Part shown: in pieces, positions 1 to 8,520 of the stretch
Position numbering within the stretch: the first letter of the stretch is position 1
How the letters are laid out: every line of letters begins with the position of its first letter
From: Methylopila sp. M107
GTDB lineage: Bacteria; Pseudomonadota; Alphaproteobacteria; Rhizobiales; Methylopilaceae
Assembly: GCF_000384475.1 (NCBI RefSeq)
Contig: NZ_ARWB01000001.1
Location: 3,289,039 to 3,353,038 of the forward strand
DNA length: 64,000 nucleotides
Direction: 5' to 3'
Translations under genes and position numbers: made by a program
Notes under the pieces: model-generated
Told to the model about the DNA's origin: nothing
The model's input: only the letters and a program-made list of their open reading frames with translations
Database searches by the model: none

Positions 1-1
1 C

Positions 2-223
2 GCTCGCGGCATCACCGCCAACACGGTCGCTCCGGGTCCGATCGCAACGGATTTCGGAGGCGGCGCCGTTCGCGCCGCGGCGGACCATATCGGGAAGGTC
101 ACGGCGCTCGGCCGGGTCGGGTTGCCCGAGGACATCGGTCCCATGATCGCCTCGCTGCTGTCGGAGGACAACCGGTGGGTGAACGCGCAGCGCATCGAAG
201 TGACCGGCGGCATGAACATCTGA
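2..223 (+). CDS. SDR family oxidoreductase, C-terminal fragment (cut by window edge)
   Basis: Open frame from the left edge to TGA at 221-223, giving the last 73 residues of a short-chain dehydrogenase/reductase. The segment N-T-V-A-P-G-P-I-A-T-D is the conserved stretch after the catalytic YxxxK of classical SDRs. The tail ...VTGGMNI matches the usual D/TGG ending of FabG-like enzymes. The catalytic Tyr/Lys and the Rossmann GxxxGxG lie outside the window, so the substrate cannot be inferred. It ends 19 nt before the TetR-type regulator, on the same strand, so the two are probably co-transcribed. Confidence 0.85.
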   Translation, partial: ARGITANTVAPGPIATDFGGGAVRAAADHIGKVTALGRVGLPEDIGPMIASLLSEDNRWVNAQRIEVTGGMNI

Positions 224-242
224 GGACGCCGGACAGCCAGAG

Positions 243-2123
243 ATGCCCGTGACCGCCGCGCCCCAAGACCCGACCGATCCGATGCGCGCGTTCGAGGCCG
301 AGCGCCGCAGGCACCTCATCGAGGCGACGATCGAGACAATTTCGGAAGTCGGTTTCAAGGCGGCGTCGCTGGGCGAGATCGCGCGTCGGGCCGGCGTCTC
401 GCAAGGCCTGTTCGCGCACTATTTTGGCGACAAGGAAGGTCTGCTCGAGGCGACCGTACGTTTCATGGCGTCGCGTCTCGCAAGCGCGCTTGCGGCGCGC
501 TTGCGAGACGCGCGGACTCCGCTCGAACGCGTTCTCGCGGTGCCCGAGACCGCGCTCGCGCGCCAGGAGTTCCACCGTCGCACCAGCGCCGTCTGGCTGG
601 CCTTCTGGGGGCAGATCCTGCACTCGACCGCGATTCGCCGCGTGCAGTCGATCTACCAGAGGCGGATGCGTTCGAACCTTCGCCATGGTCTGCGCGAGCT
701 GATCGCGCCCGAGCGTCTCGACCATGCGGTCGCGTTCATCGCCGCGACCATCGACGGCGTCTGGCTGCAATCGCACGCGACGCCGGACGTGCGCGGCGAC
801 GGAAGCGAGGCGCGCGCCGCCGTCCGGGAGTTGATTAGGACGCTGATCTCGCGGGAGTCGGAACTTCGTAGGCTTGCAGGAGCCGAGCGCGGCGCCCCGG
901 CTTTGCGGCTCCGCTCCTGGGCGCCGGCGGATGACGGCGCGACGGACGCATGGCGCCAGATCGCGCGCGACGAACGTGCGGTCATCCTGCGGCGGGTCGC
1001 CGACCGTCTGCGCGACGAGCGCAGGATCGTCGCGCGGCTCGAAGCGCGCGACACGCTGAGGCCGATCTCCGACATCGAGCGTCATGATCTGCCGCTCGTG
1101 ATCCGACTGTTCGAACGGGCCGCCGAGGCTGCGGCCGCCCCCGTGATGGACCGCGTCGGCCTCGGCTCGGGAGAATTCGGCTTTCTCAGTCGCGAGCCGC
1201 TCAATCGTGTGGTGGTGCGCGCCCGCCGGACGGCGCCGCTGCTCGAAGCGGCGCGGACCGCAGCGCCGGCGCTCGCCGCTGGCGCGACGGCGCTCCTGTG
1301 TTCGTCCGCCCGAAAGGCGCGCGCGCTGCAACGTCTCGCCGAGACGCTGCGCGAGGCGGGGGCGCCGGAGTCCGCTCTGGGCGTCGCCTGCGGTGCGGAC
1401 GCTGAACGCATGATGCTCTCGGCGATCGGGCCGGATTGGTCGCAGGATTCGGCGAAGTCGGCGGTCGTCGTCTTGTATCACGACGACATCCGCACGGTCG
1501 CGAGCGCCTTGCTTCGAGGGCCGAGGCGCTGGGCGCGGGCGCGCTCACTCAGCGAAACGCTGATCTTCGCGGCCGAGCCCATCCGTCACGAGCTCGTGGA
1601 ATGTCTCCGCTCCGAGGCGGCCTCGCTCGCGCTTGGCGACCCCACCGAGTCCGAAACCGAAGTCGGTCCGATGATCGATCGGCCGCATCTGGAGCGGACG
1701 CTCGACTTGCTCCAGCAAGCAACGAGGGAGGGCGCGAAGTTACGGATCGGGGGACGGGCTCTCGAAACCGAAGGTCGTAGCCGCTCGGTTTTTCTCAGGC
1801 CGACGGTTCTCGCCAACTGCAACGAAAACATGGACCTCGCCCGCGCGTCGACCCATGCGCCGATCGTCATGGTGTGCGGCTATGAGGACGAGGCGGAACT
1901 CGTCTGTCGCCTCGGTCGCCTCGGTCGAGATCTGTCGCTTGGGGTCTATGGCCGAGACGCCGATCATGCGGGCCGCCTCGCCCGAGAAGCGCGCGTCGGC
2001 TTCGCTCGGATCAACGACGGCGACTCGCGCTTTTCAGCGCCGCGCGAAGACTGGTCGGAACCGTCGGCCGACCAGTTCGAGACCGTCCGCAGATTGATCG
2101 TTTGCGGCGCGCCGGGCGCCTGA
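243..2123 (+). CDS. BetI/TetR-type regulator fused to a degenerate aldehyde dehydrogenase-like domain
   Basis: A 626-aa protein in two parts. Residues about 15-210 are a TetR-family repressor: an N-terminal helix-turn-helix (GFKAASLGEIARRAGVSQG, then LFAHYFGDKEGLL) and a BetI-like ligand-binding domain. Residues about 235-600 align with the aldehyde dehydrogenase fold: the N-terminal helices (ILRRVADRLRDER), an REPLN segment in place of the usual REPxG, APALAAG, and the late GDPTESETEVGPMID and FLRPTV blocks. The key elements of an active enzyme are missing. The WNFP cofactor segment is replaced, the FTGS loop is deleted, no ELGG glutamate is present, and the GQxC catalytic-Cys segment reads RRWARARS. 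So the second half looks like a pseudoenzyme, perhaps an aldehyde or cofactor sensor (inference). It sits 19 nt after an SDR gene. ATG at 243 is preceded only by a weak ribosome-binding site. Confidence 0.8.
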   Translation: MPVTAAPQDPTDPMRAFEAERRRHLIEATIETISEVGFKAASLGEIARRAGVSQGLFAHYFGDKEGLLEATVRFMASRLASALAARLRDARTPLERVLAVPETALARQEFHRRTSAVWLAFWGQILHSTAIRRVQSIYQRRMRSNLRHGLRELIAPERLDHAVAFIAATIDGVWLQSHATPDVRGDGSEARAAVRELIRTLISRESELRRLAGAERGAPALRLRSWAPADDGATDAWRQIARDERAVILRRVADRLRDERRIVARLEARDTLRPISDIERHDLPLVIRLFERAAEAAAAPVMDRVGLGSGEFGFLSREPLNRVVVRARRTAPLLEAARTAAPALAAGATALLCSSARKARALQRLAETLREAGAPESALGVACGADAERMMLSAIGPDWSQDSAKSAVVVLYHDDIRTVASALLRGPRRWARARSLSETLIFAAEPIRHELVECLRSEAASLALGDPTESETEVGPMIDRPHLERTLDLLQQATREGAKLRIGGRALETEGRSRSVFLRPTVLANCNENMDLARASTHAPIVMVCGYEDEAELVCRLGRLGRDLSLGVYGRDADHAGRLAREARVGFARINDGDSRFSAPREDWSEPSADQFETVRRLIVCGAPGA

Positions 2124-2250: not shown

Positions 2251-3090
2251 TTACTTCAGCTTGCTGAACGAGGTATCGAAGGAGAGCTTTCCGACCACGG
2301 TGCTGCCGCACCAGTTGCGCTTCAGGGTGTTGACCGCACACTCGCCTTTGCTGAGGTCGGTGTCCATGTAGCGGACGTCGAGCGTCATCGCCTTGTAGTT
2401 CACGCCGCCGCCGACGTTCCAGTAGAGGAAGTCGTGAGCGTCAAAACCATTGTCGGCTTTCTTGATCCACTGTTTGCCGATCTCGCCCGCAATATAAAAT
2501 GCAAGGTTCGGGAAGGCCGAGACCGGAATGTTCACCTTCGGCTGGACGCCTACATAGAACTCGTCAGCGCCGGTGTTAATGAAATCAGGGCTGTATGCAA
2601 AAGATCCCGTGATCGAGCCATATTCGCCAATCGCAAAAGTCGGAAACGCCTTGATCTCCCAGAAATCTGTTTCTTTCTGTCCAGGGAACGTTTTGGTTTC
2701 GTTGGGGTACCAGTAGTACAGGTAGCTGGCGTCCAGGCTGAACGCGCCCCAGCTATGGCGGATCCCTGCGTAGAAATCGACCTCGCCCGACGGATTCGTC
2801 ATGCCGAGCGTCGACGGAAACTTGACGTTCGATCCCCAGACGCCGGCGTAGAGCCAGTCGAAGGCTTGAAGTTCGACATAGCCTTGAACTGCGGGTCGCC
2901 GATTGGTCTGCGTAACGCCGTGAATGCGGTAGTCCGTGACTCCTGCGACGCCGAAGCCGACGTCGAACAAGCTTGGAACGGCGACGGCGGGCGCCGGCTC
3001 CACGACAGCGAGGTCGGCGGCGGAAGCCGTGGTCGCAGCCGACGCCAGAACCCCAGCCGCAACCGAAAATGCAACCCCAATTCGTTTCAT
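2251..3090 (-). CDS. TorF-family putative porin (outer-membrane beta-barrel)
   Basis: 279 aa. The chosen ATG at 3090 starts MKRIGVAFSVAAGVLASAATTASA, a clear Sec signal peptide. The longer frame upstream adds 52 residues that look non-coding. The mature part has alternating aromatic/hydrophobic strands (YLYYWYPNET, GSFAYSPDF, NVGGGVNYKAMTLDVRY) and ends in a lysine after FSKL. The FGVAGVTDYRIHGVTQT opening is typical of the TIGR02001/TorF family of uncharacterised porins. Expected location is the outer membrane; substrate unknown. It is transcribed alone, with a terminator-like hairpin downstream and an AT-rich upstream region that probably carries its promoter. Two cysteines near the C terminus (ECAV and WCGS) could form a disulfide. 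Confidence 0.8.
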   Translation of the reverse strand: MKRIGVAFSVAAGVLASAATTASAADLAVVEPAPAVAVPSLFDVGFGVAGVTDYRIHGVTQTNRRPAVQGYVELQAFDWLYAGVWGSNVKFPSTLGMTNPSGEVDFYAGIRHSWGAFSLDASYLYYWYPNETKTFPGQKETDFWEIKAFPTFAIGEYGSITGSFAYSPDFINTGADEFYVGVQPKVNIPVSAFPNLAFYIAGEIGKQWIKKADNGFDAHDFLYWNVGGGVNYKAMTLDVRYMDTDLSKGECAVNTLKRNWCGSTVVGKLSFDTSFSKLK

Positions 3091-3689: not shown

Positions 3690-3782
3690 TAGAGCGTGAT
3701 CGTCGTGTTTTGAATCGGGAAGGGATTCACTTTCTGGCGGATTTCTGATTCCGATTGAGTGTCGGGATTGGAGGATGGCGGA

Positions 3783-4205
3783 ATGGTTCGCGCCTATTCG
3801 CTTGATCTTCGGGAGCGCGCGGTGGCGCGGGTTGCGGCTGGCGAGAGCGTTCGTTCTGTCGCGGCGACGTTTCAGGTGAGCGTGTCGAGCGTCGTGAAAT
3901 GGTCGCAGCGCCACCGGGCGACGGGGAGCGCCGCGGCCAAACCGATGGGCTCGCGTCGTCCGTTGCGGCTCGCAGGCGAGCGGGACTGGATGCTGGCGCG
4001 GCTTGCGGCCGAGCCGCATGTCAGCTTGCGGCGGCTGCAGCGAGAGCTCGCCGAACGCGGCGTCGTTGCGAGTTATGGCGCGGTCTGGAGCCTGGTCCGC
4101 TCTGAGAAGCTGAGCTTCAAAAAAAACCGTTCTGGCGAGCGAACGGGACAGGCCGGACGTCGTGCGCCGCCGACGAAGGTGGCGAAGCCTTCAGAGGCGC
4201 GTTGA
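3783..4205 (+). CDS. IS630-family transposase, orfA (DNA-binding half), copy 1
   Basis: 140 aa from ATG 3783, chosen because GGAGG at 3770-3774 sits 8 nt upstream. [14 protein letters not shown] and the following [22 protein letters not shown] are the N-terminal helix-turn-helix of IS630 transposases. A second HTH-like region with [15 protein letters not shown] follows. The frame passes through a run of eight A residues (4119-4126) and then continues about 26 codons beyond it, ending at 4205. The catalytic half is in the +1 frame (orfB), so an active transposase needs a shift on the A8 run, by ribosomal frameshifting or transcriptional slippage. Confidence 0.9.
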
Positions 4206-4725
4206 CGCCTCCCGTCTCGTCTTCCTCGACGAGACCTGGGCCAAGACCAACATGGCGCCGCTGCGCGGCTGGAGCCCGCGTGGCCAGCGGCTGAACGCCA
4301 AGGTTCCGCACGCGCACTGGAAGACAATGACGTTCCTCGCCGCGCTGCGCTCGGACAGGATCGATGCGCCCTGCGTGTTCGACGGTCCGATCAACGGCGT
4401 CCGCTTCCTCGCCTACGTGACCGAGGTTCTGATCCCGACGCTGAAGCCCGGCGACGTCGTCGTGCTCGACAACCTCGGCAGCCACAAAGGAAAGGCCGTC
4501 CGAGAGGCCATCCGAAACGCTGGAGCCCGGCTCGCCTTCCTGCCGCCCTACAGCCCCGACCTCAACCCGATCGAGCAGGTCTTCGCCAAGCTCAAGCACA
4601 TGCTGCGCAGAGCTCAGGAACGAACGGTCGAAACCACCTGGCGGCGCATCCCGACACTCCTCAACGACTTCTCCGCCGAAGAATGCCGAAACTACATCGT
4701 CAACGCTGGATACGCGTCAATATGA
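4162..4725 (+). CDS. IS630-family transposase, orfB (DDE catalytic half), copy 1
   Basis: As an independent frame it opens at GTG 4162 (187 aa), but the same frame is open back to the A8 slippage run at 4119-4126. There it would give [20 protein letters not shown], the normal internal junction of IS630 transposases. The catalytic triad is visible: LVFLDETW (first D), [10 protein letters not shown] (second D) and [12 protein letters not shown] (E). The frame is therefore most likely translated as an orfA-orfB fusion and not from its own start. It ends 13 bp before the right inverted-repeat end. Confidence 0.9.
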
Positions 4726-4805: not shown

Positions 4806-6275
4806 CTAGCCGTGCGCGGGCCATCCGTTCGCCAGGCCGCCGAGGCAGACATATTTCAGCTCGGTGAACTCGATGATGCCGTGGCTCGAGCCTTCGCGAG
4901 AATTCCCGCTCTGCTTGATCCCGCCAAAGGGCGCGAGTTCGGTGGAGATCAGGCCGGTGTTGACCCCGACCATGCCGAATTCGAGCCGCTCCATCACCCG
5001 GATGATCCGGGCGTAATCCCGAGCGTAGAAATAGGCGGCAAGCCCGGTTTCAGGGCCGTTTGCGGCTTCGACGGCCTCGTCTTCCGTTTCGAATCGGTAG
5101 ATCGCCGCGAGCGGCCCGAACGTTTCCTCACGCGCAAGTCGCATCAATGCCGTCGCCCCGGTCACAATCGTCGGCTCGTAGAACAGCTCGCCGAGCGGGC
5201 TGCGGCGTCCGCCCAGAACGATCTGCGCGCCGCGTGCGAGCGCGTCGGCCAGATGCTCCTCGACCTTCGCGACCGCCCTTCGCGTGATCAAGGGTCCCTG
5301 GGTCACGCCGGCCGAAAATCCGTCCCCGAGCCTCAGTTCGCCGACGGGCGCTTTCAGCTTTTCGACGAAGGCGTCGTGGACGGAAGTATCGACGAGAAAT
5401 CGATTAGTGCAGACGCACGTTTGGCCCATGTTCCTGAACTTTGAGACCATCGCGCCCTCGACCGCGGCGTCGAGATCCGCGTCGTCGAACACGATGAAGG
5501 GCGCGTTGCCGCCAAGTTCCAACGCGACCTTCTTCACCGTGCCCGCCGACTGGCGCATGAGAATCTTGCCGACATCGGTCGAACCGGTGAAGCCGACGAG
5601 GCGAACCTTCTCGTGAGAGGTCAGCACGCCCCCGATCTCGATCGGATCGCCGGTGATGACGTTCACCGCGCCGGCCGGAAAGCCGGCGCGCCGAGCGAGC
5701 TCGGCGAGCGCGAGCGCCGTCAGCGGGGTTTCGGGCGCGGGCTTCACGACGACTGTGCATCCGGCGGCGAGCGCCGGCGCGATCTTGCGGGTGATCATCG
5801 CGGCCGGGAAATTCCAGGGCGTGATCGCCGCCACGACGCCGATCGGCTGGCGCAACACCATGATGCGCGCGTCGGCGCGGTGCGAGGGCAGGAGTTCGCC
5901 CGCGACTCGCTTCGCTTCTTCCGCGTAGAACTCGACATAGGAGGCGGCGTAGGCGATCTCGCCGAGCGCCTCGAGCAGGGGCTTGCCCTGTTCCGAGGTC
6001 AGGATCGTGGCGAGGTCGATCCTGTTCTCCAGGATCAGATCGCGCCAGGCGCGCAGGACGTCCGAGCGCTCCTGCGCGGTCTTCCCCGCCCAGCCCGGAA
6101 AGGCGGCGCTTGCGGCGTCCACCGCCGCGGTCGCGGCTTCCGCTCCGAGATGTGGGACCCGGCCGATCACCGTTCCGTCGGCCGGGTTCACGACCTCGAA
6201 GCTTGGTTCGCCGACGAACCGGCCGTCGAGGAAGGCTTGCTGCCTGAACAGGGACGGATCCGCGAGAACGCGCAC
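4806..6275 (-). CDS. gabD: NAD(P)-dependent aldehyde dehydrogenase, succinate-semialdehyde dehydrogenase type
   Basis: 489 aa, normal length for GabD. It would oxidise succinate semialdehyde (or a close aldehyde) to the acid in the cytoplasm, feeding the TCA cycle. Visible signatures are TPWNFPAAMITRKIAPALAAG (cofactor segment), VGFTGSTDVGK, LELGGNAPFIVFDDADLD (general-base Glu) and GQTCVCTNRFLV with the nucleophilic Cys. The family match is strong; the exact substrate is inferred. It lies about 280 bp downstream of the copper amine oxidase gene on the same strand, so it may take on the aldehydes made by that enzyme. IS630 copy 1 ends 68 bp past the stop codon. Confidence 0.88.
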   Translation of the reverse strand: MRVLADPSLFRQQAFLDGRFVGEPSFEVVNPADGTVIGRVPHLGAEAATAAVDAASAAFPGWAGKTAQERSDVLRAWRDLILENRIDLATILTSEQGKPLLEALGEIAYAASYVEFYAEEAKRVAGELLPSHRADARIMVLRQPIGVVAAITPWNFPAAMITRKIAPALAAGCTVVVKPAPETPLTALALAELARRAGFPAGAVNVITGDPIEIGGVLTSHEKVRLVGFTGSTDVGKILMRQSAGTVKKVALELGGNAPFIVFDDADLDAAVEGAMVSKFRNMGQTCVCTNRFLVDTSVHDAFVEKLKAPVGELRLGDGFSAGVTQGPLITRRAVAKVEEHLADALARGAQIVLGGRRSPLGELFYEPTIVTGATALMRLAREETFGPLAAIYRFETEDEAVEAANGPETGLAAYFYARDYARIIRVMERLEFGMVGVNTGLISTELAPFGGIKQSGNSREGSSHGIIEFTELKYVCLGGLANGWPAHG

Positions 6276-6508
6276 GTTGCTGCCTCGGCGGCGATCGCAC
6301 GGCAGTCGCGGCTGGCCGCGACCCGACGTTGGATCGACGCTTATGGTCTTGGAGGCTGCGCCGCTGTCCGGACAGTGACCGCCGTCAGATCCGTCTGAGG
6401 CCAGTAACGATCACGACGAAACGGCCGACGCTCCAAAACATGGTGGGTGACCTGACGACAAGCTCACCATTTCAGCAGGAGCGCGACCATACCCCGCCAG
6501 AGGGACAA

Positions 6509-6533
6509 CGGCGCCTGGTCGCCCCTGGCGCCG
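6509..6533 (-). terminator. GC-rich hairpin downstream of the amine oxidase gene
   Basis: CGGCGCC and GGCGCCG form a 7-bp stem, extended by two further pairs after a mismatch, located 22 nt beyond the amine oxidase stop codon. There is no T-run, so termination activity is uncertain. Confidence 0.3.
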
Positions 6534-6555
6534 CACTGCGGTCGAAAGCGCGGTT

Positions 6556-8520
6556 TCATGAGCCGCCGCAGCATCCGCTGGCCGCGCGGGCGTCGACGCT
6601 CTTCGCGTTCGCGCCCGCCGGCAGATCCATCGCGATGTTCGCGCGGAAGAAGCCGCTCGGCTTCAGCATGAAGCCCGCATATTCGACCGGCATGATCGGA
6701 AAGTCCTCAGGCTTGCACACGTGAGTGTGTCCGAAAGAGTGCCAGACGACGAGATCGGCGTTCTCGATCGGCCGGTTCTGCGCGACGTAAGCCGGCAGGC
6801 CGTCGCCGCCGGCGTGCACGTTCGGATAGTCGCCGCTCGCGTATTTCTCCGCCTTGTCGAACGGCGTGACCCAGATGTGGCGCGTCGCGAAGCCGCCCCG
6901 GGCGCGGACCGTCGAGCCCTCCTGAGCGAGCATCACGGGGCTCGGCGTCGCGACGATCTTGTAGCCTGTCGGCTTTCCGACGGTGTTGGCCACGTTGGGA
7001 TTGACGATCTTCCAGTAACGCCCGGTCGCGCCGTCTGCGAGGCCGTTCGACTGGTTTTCGGTCGCGAGCGTGGTGGAGCGCAGATCGAACCTGTTGCCGT
7101 AGGGGTTGTCGGGGCCCATCGGCCGCGGTGCGAACTCGTGCTCGCTGAGACTGTTGCCGCCCCCGTCAATGTCCATGTGCATGCGCACGTTGAAGAAGTG
7201 CTGGTGGGTCGGTCCGCCGAGATTGTCGTCGACCATCCCGCCATAGGGGTAGTCCGCGCCGTCCCCGACCGCGGCCGTCTGGATGATGCCGGTGAGCTTC
7301 GCCTCGAGCTGGATCGTGCCGTCCTGGTAGAGATACCAGTAGAAGCCGTAGTCGTAGTTTCCGACGGTCGCGAAGAACGAGATGACGAGCCGCCTGGAGC
7401 GCCGCGTCTCCGACATTCCGGTGCGGATTTCGTTATGCTTCCAGAGGATGCCGTAATCCTCCTCGTGCATGCAGACGGCGTTCTTCATCACGGTGGTCCG
7501 GCCGCGGTCGTCGGCGATCGGGATGTCGAAATAGCGGATGTGCCCGAGGCAGTCGCAGCCGACCTCGAGCGCATTGGCGAGCCGCCCGAGCCCGTATTCG
7601 CCGGCGTCGAAGGCGCTCTTCCAAAAGTGGTTGGCCGTCGGGTCGGCGTACGGCACCACCATCTCGGTGACGCTCGCGCGGAAGATCACCGGACGGACGC
7701 GATCGCCGTCCCGGATCGACAGCTCGTGCAGAACGAGGCCCTCGCGCGGCGTGAAGCCGACGCGGAACGCCCAATTCTGCCATTCGACCTTCCAGCCGTC
7801 GACCGTGAAGCTCGGTCCTTCGCTCTGCACAAGATCGAGCGGCTTTAAGTCTTTTCGGGGCTCGAAGGCCTCGCGGCCGTAATTGCGCTTCTTGCGGGGG
7901 ATGGGCGGAGCGTCCTCGTCGTCGAACAGGTCGACGACGCGCCTTTCGATGAGGTCGACCACCGCGACCAGCCCTTCGATCGGATGGGCGTAGGCGTTGT
8001 CCCGCAGGTCCTCCCGCCAGTAGCTGACGGCGCGGAGAATGCGCCGTCCGCGCTCGAATTCGAGATCGAAGAAGCCGGACGAAAACGAATCGACTTGAAT
8101 GAGCTCGAGTTCCGCCTCCGTGACGCCTCGGCGCATGACGGCGGCCCGCCAGCCCGGATCGGCCTTCGCGATCGTCTCGCAAAGGAACAGCTCCTCGATC
8201 GTCATCGGCGGCTGGCCGTAGGGCGCCGCGCGGTTCGGCAGCGGCTTGGAAAAAACGACCTCGCCGCGCGCGACGTCGACGATCGTCTCTTCGGCGTCGC
8301 CCGAGAGGTTGTCGAGATGCAGCACGAAGGCGAGCCGCGGCAAGGGCTCGCCGGCGCGCCAGGCGGAGAGCTCGGCCTTGTCCGGTTCCTCGAGACGCAC
8401 GATCGGAAACCGCGCGGTCTCGCCGAGCGACCGGGCCTTCGATACGAGCGCGACGGCGTCGGCGATTTCCTGCGCGCTCAGCGGGTCGAGCGGGTATGCG
8501 TGGGTCACGTTTGCATCCAT
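6556..8520 (-). CDS. tynA: Copper-containing primary-amine oxidase (TPQ cofactor)
   Basis: 654 aa, a normal length for a bacterial copper amine oxidase without the extra N-terminal D1 domain of the E. coli enzyme. It oxidises primary amines to aldehydes with release of ammonia and H2O2. The TPQ precursor Tyr is in VGNYDYGFYW (about residue 388); the copper ligands are in GPTHQHFFN (about 438-440) and in GHTHVCKPEDFP (about 597). The catalytic-base Asp lies in the ADPTANHFWKSAFDAGEYG region. No signal peptide is seen, so it is probably cytoplasmic, as in Arthrobacter-type enzymes. The C terminus (SGCCGGS) has a Cys pair that could bind metal. A small Cys/His protein is encoded 15 bp upstream, and a divergent AraC regulator lies beyond it. 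Confidence 0.92.
   Translation of the reverse strand: MDANVTHAYPLDPLSAQEIADAVALVSKARSLGETARFPIVRLEEPDKAELSAWRAGEPLPRLAFVLHLDNLSGDAEETIVDVARGEVVFSKPLPNRAAPYGQPPMTIEELFLCETIAKADPGWRAAVMRRGVTEAELELIQVDSFSSGFFDLEFERGRRILRAVSYWREDLRDNAYAHPIEGLVAVVDLIERRVVDLFDDEDAPPIPRKKRNYGREAFEPRKDLKPLDLVQSEGPSFTVDGWKVEWQNWAFRVGFTPREGLVLHELSIRDGDRVRPVIFRASVTEMVVPYADPTANHFWKSAFDAGEYGLGRLANALEVGCDCLGHIRYFDIPIADDRGRTTVMKNAVCMHEEDYGILWKHNEIRTGMSETRRSRRLVISFFATVGNYDYGFYWYLYQDGTIQLEAKLTGIIQTAAVGDGADYPYGGMVDDNLGGPTHQHFFNVRMHMDIDGGGNSLSEHEFAPRPMGPDNPYGNRFDLRSTTLATENQSNGLADGATGRYWKIVNPNVANTVGKPTGYKIVATPSPVMLAQEGSTVRARGGFATRHIWVTPFDKAEKYASGDYPNVHAGGDGLPAYVAQNRPIENADLVVWHSFGHTHVCKPEDFPIMPVEYAGFMLKPSGFFRANIAMDLPAGANAKSVDARAASGCCGGS

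What the first reader, a model, noticed from the sequence alone, without database searches (positions are those of the whole stretch)
243..2123. BetI-type TetR regulator fused to a catalytically dead aldehyde dehydrogenase fold
Seen: an HTH/BetI ligand-binding half (about residues 15-210) followed in the same frame by about 365 residues that align with ALDH, but without the GQxC nucleophile, the ELGG general base or the FTGS cofactor loop. In betIBA operons the repressor and the dehydrogenase are separate genes. A fused pseudo-ALDH could act as a built-in aldehyde or cofactor sensor. An SDR gene is directly upstream. I know of no described regulator with this layout.
Basis: partly seen in the sequence, partly recalled or inferred. 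Interest (0 to 1): 0.78.

Follow-up and report, generated by a model that had tools for sequence, protein, structure and literature searches.

The report
Choline repressor carrying a dead enzyme
A bacterial choline-type gene repressor carries, as its second half, an aldehyde dehydrogenase that has lost every catalytic residue but still keeps its fold; relatives show each stage from two neighbouring genes, to a working repressor-enzyme fusion, to a dead one, and in this genome the protein has even outlived the choline genes it once controlled.

Summary
Window 243-2123 encodes one 626-residue protein: a BetI-type TetR repressor (residues 17-206) fused to a complete but catalytically dead aldehyde dehydrogenase (ALDH) fold (about 225-616). 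It is not a frameshift or chimera. At least 14 orthologues in Methylopila, Chelatococcus, Hyphomicrobium, Methylobacterium and Methylorubrum share the fusion and the losses. Wider searches give the origin. In other Hyphomicrobiales the same fusion carries an intact betaine-aldehyde dehydrogenase (BetB) and is the genome's only BetB. In other Alphaproteobacteria betI and betB are neighbouring genes, often in frame. The dead family descends from active fusions. All dead-clade genomes checked except the window's also have a separate BetB of another lineage. The dead half evolves 2-5 times faster than the repressor half but under purifying selection (omega 0.2-0.45). Nearly every relative has two BetI-type boxes upstream. 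The window genome lacks BetA, BetB, ChoX and every good copy of the box, yet keeps the gene open. Best reading: a repressor whose fused enzyme was decommissioned and kept as a folded, probably assembly or stability, module; here it is an orphan. No description of BetI-BetB fusions was found in the papers searched.

The parts
243..2123 (+). BetI / dead-ALDH fusion gene, 626 aa (stop included)
   Evidence: ORF; Pfam and NCBIfam; orthologues
315..452 (+). TetR_N helix-turn-helix (residues 25-70)
   Evidence: Pfam PF00440
519..848 (+). BetI-type C-terminal domain TetR_C_6 (residues 93-202)
   Evidence: Pfam PF13977
879..941 (+). disordered linker (residues 213-233, pLDDT under 50)
   Evidence: model
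945..2087 (+). dead ALDH fold (residues about 235-615)
   Evidence: Pfam PF00171; structure
1227..1232 (+). lost WN motif: Arg329-Thr330 where BetB has Trp-Asn
   Evidence: alignment; W329R unique to the window protein
1443..1445 (+). lost general base: Gln401 at the ELGG Glu position
   Evidence: alignment
1545..1547 (+). lost nucleophile: Ser435 at the catalytic Cys position
   Evidence: alignment
1..222 (+). 3' end of SDR gene, last of a six-gene catabolic operon (FAA hydrolase, CMD, flavin reductase, SnoaL, NAD(P)H-binding, SDR) that ends at the fusion
   Evidence: L016 annotation
2251..3090 (-). TorF-family porin gene; conserved 3' neighbour of the fusion
   Evidence: 68/65/51% identical to the porin beside the fusion in Methylopila/Chelatococcus loci

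Best explanation
This is a BetI repressor with a decommissioned BetB fused to it. Shown by sequence: tandem betI-betB became one reading frame; in most Hyphomicrobiales fusions found here the enzyme half is intact and is the cell's only BetB; in the lineage of Methylopila, Hyphomicrobium and Methylobacterium a separate BetB of a different lineage lies in the choXWV-betB-betA operon (or elsewhere in the genome), and the fused ALDH lost its catalytic and NAD-binding residues but kept an open frame and an ALDH fold. Inferred: the N half binds two BetI-type boxes between the divergent fusion and choX promoters and is released by choline. Inferred and less sure: the dead half is kept mainly as a folded assembly or stability module of the repressor (ALDHs form dimers and tetramers). 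In the window genome the choline genes and the boxes are gone; the fusion sits at the end of an unrelated catabolic operon, most likely as an orphan TetR regulator with a new or drifting target.
For: Conserved fusion and losses in 15 proteins. Active fusions, 13 genomes, all motifs intact, each the only BetB-grade gene of its genome at 58-63% identity, next best 46% or less. In-frame tandem betI-stop-betB in other Alphaproteobacteria. BetI-half tree: all fusions in one clade (100/99), dead clade 100/100 inside it; ALDH-half tree: dead halves one clade (99), separate BetBs of the same genomes in another lineage. Omega of dead ALDH halves 0.20-0.45 against 0.05-0.28 for their BetI halves, both halves about equal in active fusions; 5-24 stops expected if neutral, none seen. 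BetI-type boxes upstream. Bet gene order. BetA, BetB, ChoX absent from G000; porin junction conserved. Window branch not longer than its sister path in either half.
Against: No experiment. The ALDH half evolves faster and was discarded in Hansschlegelia and Roseiarcus relatives, so it is dispensable there. Boxes and repression are inferred from motif and position only. Omega for window pairs rests on dS near 1.
Confidence: 0.6

Rival explanations
1. Passenger in decay: the dead ALDH half has no role of its own; it only has to fold well enough not to harm the repressor, and is being lost lineage by lineage.
For: Faster evolution of the ALDH half; complete loss in Hansschlegelia and Roseiarcus inside the dead clade, with about 31 ALDH-derived residues left in H. 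plantiphila; a second decay in genus g80, where choline-oxidation genes are gone and only choXWV remains.
Against: Frames stay open across genera at 30-50% identity with omega 0.2-0.45; premature stops after BetI would be easy and harmless, yet most lineages keep about 400 residues.
Confidence: 0.35
2. Aldehyde or cofactor sensor: the dead half binds betaine aldehyde, choline or NAD(H) and passes the signal to the BetI half.
For: Family keeps the Trp of the WN motif (14 of 15) and two other active-site positions, F401 and P403; fold kept.
Against: All NAD-binding motif residues tested are lost; the window protein itself lost the Trp; BetI already senses choline in characterised members that have no ALDH half (PMC12442346).
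Confidence: 0.15
3. The ALDH half still catalyses something with different residues.
For: Ser at the Cys position in the window protein.
Against: Ala or Phe at that position in most orthologues, no general base, no cofactor motif.
Confidence: 0.02
4. Assembly or frameshift artefact.
For: None found.
Against: At least 14 orthologues in separately sequenced genomes, single open frame in each.
Confidence: 0.005

Closest known systems
BetI, choline-responsive TetR repressor of bet genes (TIGR03384, PRK00767; two alphaproteobacterial BetIs in PMC12442346)
   Same: Whole N half; in orthologues the same genomic place beside choXWV, betB, betA and palindromic boxes between divergent promoters
   Different: About 400 extra residues of dead ALDH; in the window genome no bet genes and no box
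BetB, betaine-aldehyde dehydrogenase (TIGR01804, PRK13252)
   Same: Fold and ancestry of the C half
   Different: Cys, Glu, Asn, Lys and GxTxxG all lost; fused to BetI; N-terminal about 45 residues missing
Fused BetI-BetB annotated only as betB, e.g. Komagataeibacter saccharivorans WP_243705386.1
   Same: Same fusion order, followed by betA
   Different: Full-length enzyme half, annotated as the dehydrogenase; not characterised
Trifunctional PutA (PMC5293562)
   Same: Autogenous repressor fused to an ALDH that belongs to the regulated pathway
   Different: RHH DNA-binding domain, flavin-dependent PRODH domain, enzyme active
BzdR, regulator with a shikimate-kinase-derived effector domain (PMC3602430)
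   Same: DNA-binding domain joined to a former enzyme that lost its activity
   Different: Different folds; BzdR's former enzyme domain binds the effector, which is not shown here

Membership tests
BetI | TetR helix-turn-helix and TetR_C_6 domain | tested here: met
   Pfam PF00440 and PF13977 above cut-off
BetI | Score above the curated cut-off of the BetI models | tested here: inconclusive
   NF001978: 164 bits, cut-off 118, passed; TIGR03384: 179 bits, cut-off 201, missed
BetI | Place beside choline genes | tested here: not met
   Met in Methylopila and Methylobacterium orthologues; not in the window genome, which lacks BetA, BetB and ChoX
BetI | Palindromic box in its own upstream region | tested here: not met
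   Present in nearly all relatives, absent near the window gene; no site with 0 or 1 mismatch in G000
BetI | Choline as effector | not testable with these tools
   Needs a binding assay
BetB / ALDH enzyme | ALDH fold | tested here: met
   Z about 30, rmsd about 3 A; Pfam Aldedh
BetB / ALDH enzyme | Catalytic Cys and general-base Glu | tested here: not met
   Ser435 and Gln401
BetB / ALDH enzyme | NAD-binding Lys/Glu and GxTxxG | tested here: not met
   CSSA and deletion
PutA | RHH and PRODH domains | tested here: not met
   Pfam finds only TetR and Aldedh domains above cut-off

The most novel reading that the evidence does not exclude
The dead ALDH half is a working regulatory module, for example an assembly domain that lets two BetI dimers hold the paired boxes of the divergent promoters, or a ligand sensor; a documented path from gene pair to bifunctional enzyme-repressor to pseudoenzyme regulator.
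Probability: 0.3. Interest if true: 0.78.

Novelty: new variant of a known kind. Interest (0 to 1): 0.62.

Why it matters
Regulators are thought to arise when enzymes gain DNA-binding parts and lose catalysis, but series of living intermediates are rare. Here one family shows neighbouring genes, in-frame neighbours, an apparently active repressor-enzyme fusion (a PutA-like arrangement for choline, annotated merely as betB where an annotation was seen), partly decayed fusions within one genus, fully dead fusions, and secondary loss of the dead half. It lets the question 'what is a fused dead enzyme kept for?' be tested in cultivable methylotrophs.

Tried and rejected
Frameshift or chimera: rejected by orthologues. 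An ALDH gene of the same genome as origin of the C half: the window genome's own ALDHs are only 22-29% identical to it and group elsewhere. IclR-type palindrome upstream of the FAA-hydrolase gene considered as the new operator: its GAAC/GTTC spacing differs from the BetI-type box and it faces a divergent IclR gene, so it was set aside. Two-mismatch boxes in G000: 16 against 11 for the reversed control, i.e. background. Helical phasing of the two boxes: weak (unique spacings p about 0.03-0.06, peak nearer 11 than 10.5), left as inconclusive. Single shared decay of the dead clade and the g80 genus: AU p = 0.06, not rejected, so two independent decays are likely but not proven. Literature for BetI-BetB fusions: nothing found; the passages of PMC7824335 and PMC4744692 that were read mention no such fusion. 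The library holds only openly licensed papers.

Full report
WHAT IS THERE. Window 243-2123 is a single open frame of 626 residues. Residues 17-206 match BetI (TIGR03384 E=8.6e-53 and PRK00767 E=2.7e-48 on residues 1-220; Pfam TetR_N and TetR_C_6). Residues 235-593 match Aldedh (E=3e-50), best of all betaine-aldehyde dehydrogenase. The upstream SDR gene ends 20 bases before the ATG.

THE ENZYME HALF IS DEAD BUT FOLDED. Against 4 BetBs and 13 intact fusions the catalytic Cys is Ser435, the ELGG Glu is Gln401, the WN pair is Arg-Thr, KPSE is CSSA and the GxTxxG stretch is deleted. In 15 dead family members, 25 invariant columns of catalytic or cofactor motifs are kept in 2.3 of 15 on average, other invariant columns in 5.8 of 15; only Trp of WN (14/15, lost in the window protein alone), a Phe and a Pro are kept. 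Predicted alone, the half gives pLDDT 85 and pTM 0.85 and matches solved ALDHs at Z about 30, rmsd about 3 A over about 380 residues.

IT IS CONSERVED. The same fusion with the same losses occurs in Methylopila, Chelatococcus sambhunathii, Hyphomicrobium facile, several Methylobacterium and Methylorubrum species and an uncultured Rhizobiales bacterium, 38-59% identical over full length. Methylobacterium members keep more of the ALDH N-terminus.

WHERE IT CAME FROM. Searching 397 genomes of the order gave 22 open fusions: 6 dead ones in the window's genus, 13 fusions with all catalytic motifs intact in other families, and 3 partly decayed ones in one genus (g80) that also holds 2 of the intact ones. 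In the wider class, further intact-length fusions and in-frame betI-stop-betB tandems appear. A named example with an intact-length fusion, Komagataeibacter saccharivorans, is annotated as betB only and is followed by betA. The BetI-half tree puts all fusions in one clade (100/99) and the dead ones in a 100/100 clade inside it; BetI-only genes of Hansschlegelia and Roseiarcus fall inside the dead clade, and a tree that keeps the dead fusions apart from them is rejected (AU p=0.003), so these lost the ALDH half secondarily. H. plantiphila still has about 31 ALDH-derived residues (0 of 500 shuffles as good against five of six relatives). Whether g80 decayed independently is likely but not proven (AU p=0.06). 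In the ALDH-half tree the dead halves form one clade with long branches, beside decayed and active fused BetBs; the separate BetBs of the same genomes belong to another lineage. Long branches make the exact place in that tree unsure.

GENE CONTENT EXPLAINS THE DECAY. In all 13 active-fusion genomes the fusion is the only BetB-grade gene; in the examples fetched the order is choXWV, divergent, fusion, betA. In dead-clade loci of Methylopila, Chelatococcus and most Methylobacterium the divergent operon is choXWV-betB-betA with its own BetB; Hyphomicrobium facile has a BetB elsewhere. In g80 decayed genomes choXWV stays while a close betA and BetB are missing. The window genome has no BetA and no ChoX at the thresholds used and no BetB above 41% identity. 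Its fusion ends an operon of FAA hydrolase, carboxymuconolactone-decarboxylase-like, flavin reductase, SnoaL, NAD(P)H-binding and SDR genes, yet the TorF-porin gene on its 3' side is the same neighbour as in Methylopila and Chelatococcus (68, 65, 51% identical). So the gene stayed and its choline side was replaced.

SELECTION. Between close relatives the dead ALDH half shows omega 0.20-0.45, its BetI half 0.05-0.28; in active fusions both halves are alike. If neutral, 5 to 24 stop codons would be expected at these divergences, and none is seen. The window branch is about as long as its sister path in both trees, which argues against sudden decay after loss of the choline genes. Its BetI half departs at only 4 family-invariant positions, mostly conservative.

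OPERATOR. TTGAAYGNNCRTTCAA or a near match occurs twice upstream of nearly every dead and active fusion, one copy towards each divergent promoter; none lies near the window gene or the Hyphomicrobium one, and G000 has no site with 0 or 1 mismatch. Spacing hints at helical phasing but weakly.

HOW IT PROBABLY WORKS. Shown: fusion, loss of catalytic residues, predicted fold, ancestry, gene content, boxes. Inferred from the BetI family (choline as effector, PMC12442346): repression of choXWV-bet and of itself in the relatives. Inferred and less sure: the dead half serves assembly or stability. The passenger reading is nearly as likely; the sensor reading less so. In the window genome the target is unknown.

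KNOWN OR NEW. PutA (PMC5293562) is a repressor fused to an active pathway ALDH; BzdR (PMC3602430) is a regulator with a former enzyme as effector domain. A BetI-BetB fusion, active or dead, was not found in the papers searched. I file it as a new variant of a known kind: an enzyme-derived domain kept in a transcription factor.

Noticed in passing
window 3759-4205 (+) and 4162-4725 (+): IS630-type transposase split over two overlapping frames (HTH part, then DDE_3 part), just 3' of the porin gene; looks like a frameshifted insertion-sequence gene.
   Followed up: partly
window 4806-6275 (-): Intact aldehyde dehydrogenase with ELGG and GQTC motifs, 2.7 kb from the dead ALDH half.
   Followed up: partly
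L125:2006 (G000:C1:3232505): Perfect palindrome TGGAACGATCGTTCCA, two mismatches from the BetI-type box, about 100 bases upstream of a permease-like gene; possible drifted target, but such sites are at background frequency.
   Followed up: partly
L016, about 6500-6560, upstream of the FAA hydrolase gene: Palindrome CGAACATTGATGTTCG between divergent IclR and FAA-hydrolase genes, probably the IclR operator.
   Followed up: no
L052-L061, L064-L066, L076, L078, L079: Fused BetI-BetB with intact or full-length enzyme half in many Alphaproteobacteria; the one annotated case seen (L076) is named only betB, so betI may be wrongly scored absent there.
   Followed up: partly
L075 (G216): betI and betB overlap in different frames although BetI falls in the fusion clade; possibly a fusion that split again.
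   Followed up: no
upstream regions of fusions, e.g. L018, L022, L053: Two BetI-type boxes 90-234 bases apart, spacing weakly periodic near 11 bases; possible looping.
   Followed up: partly
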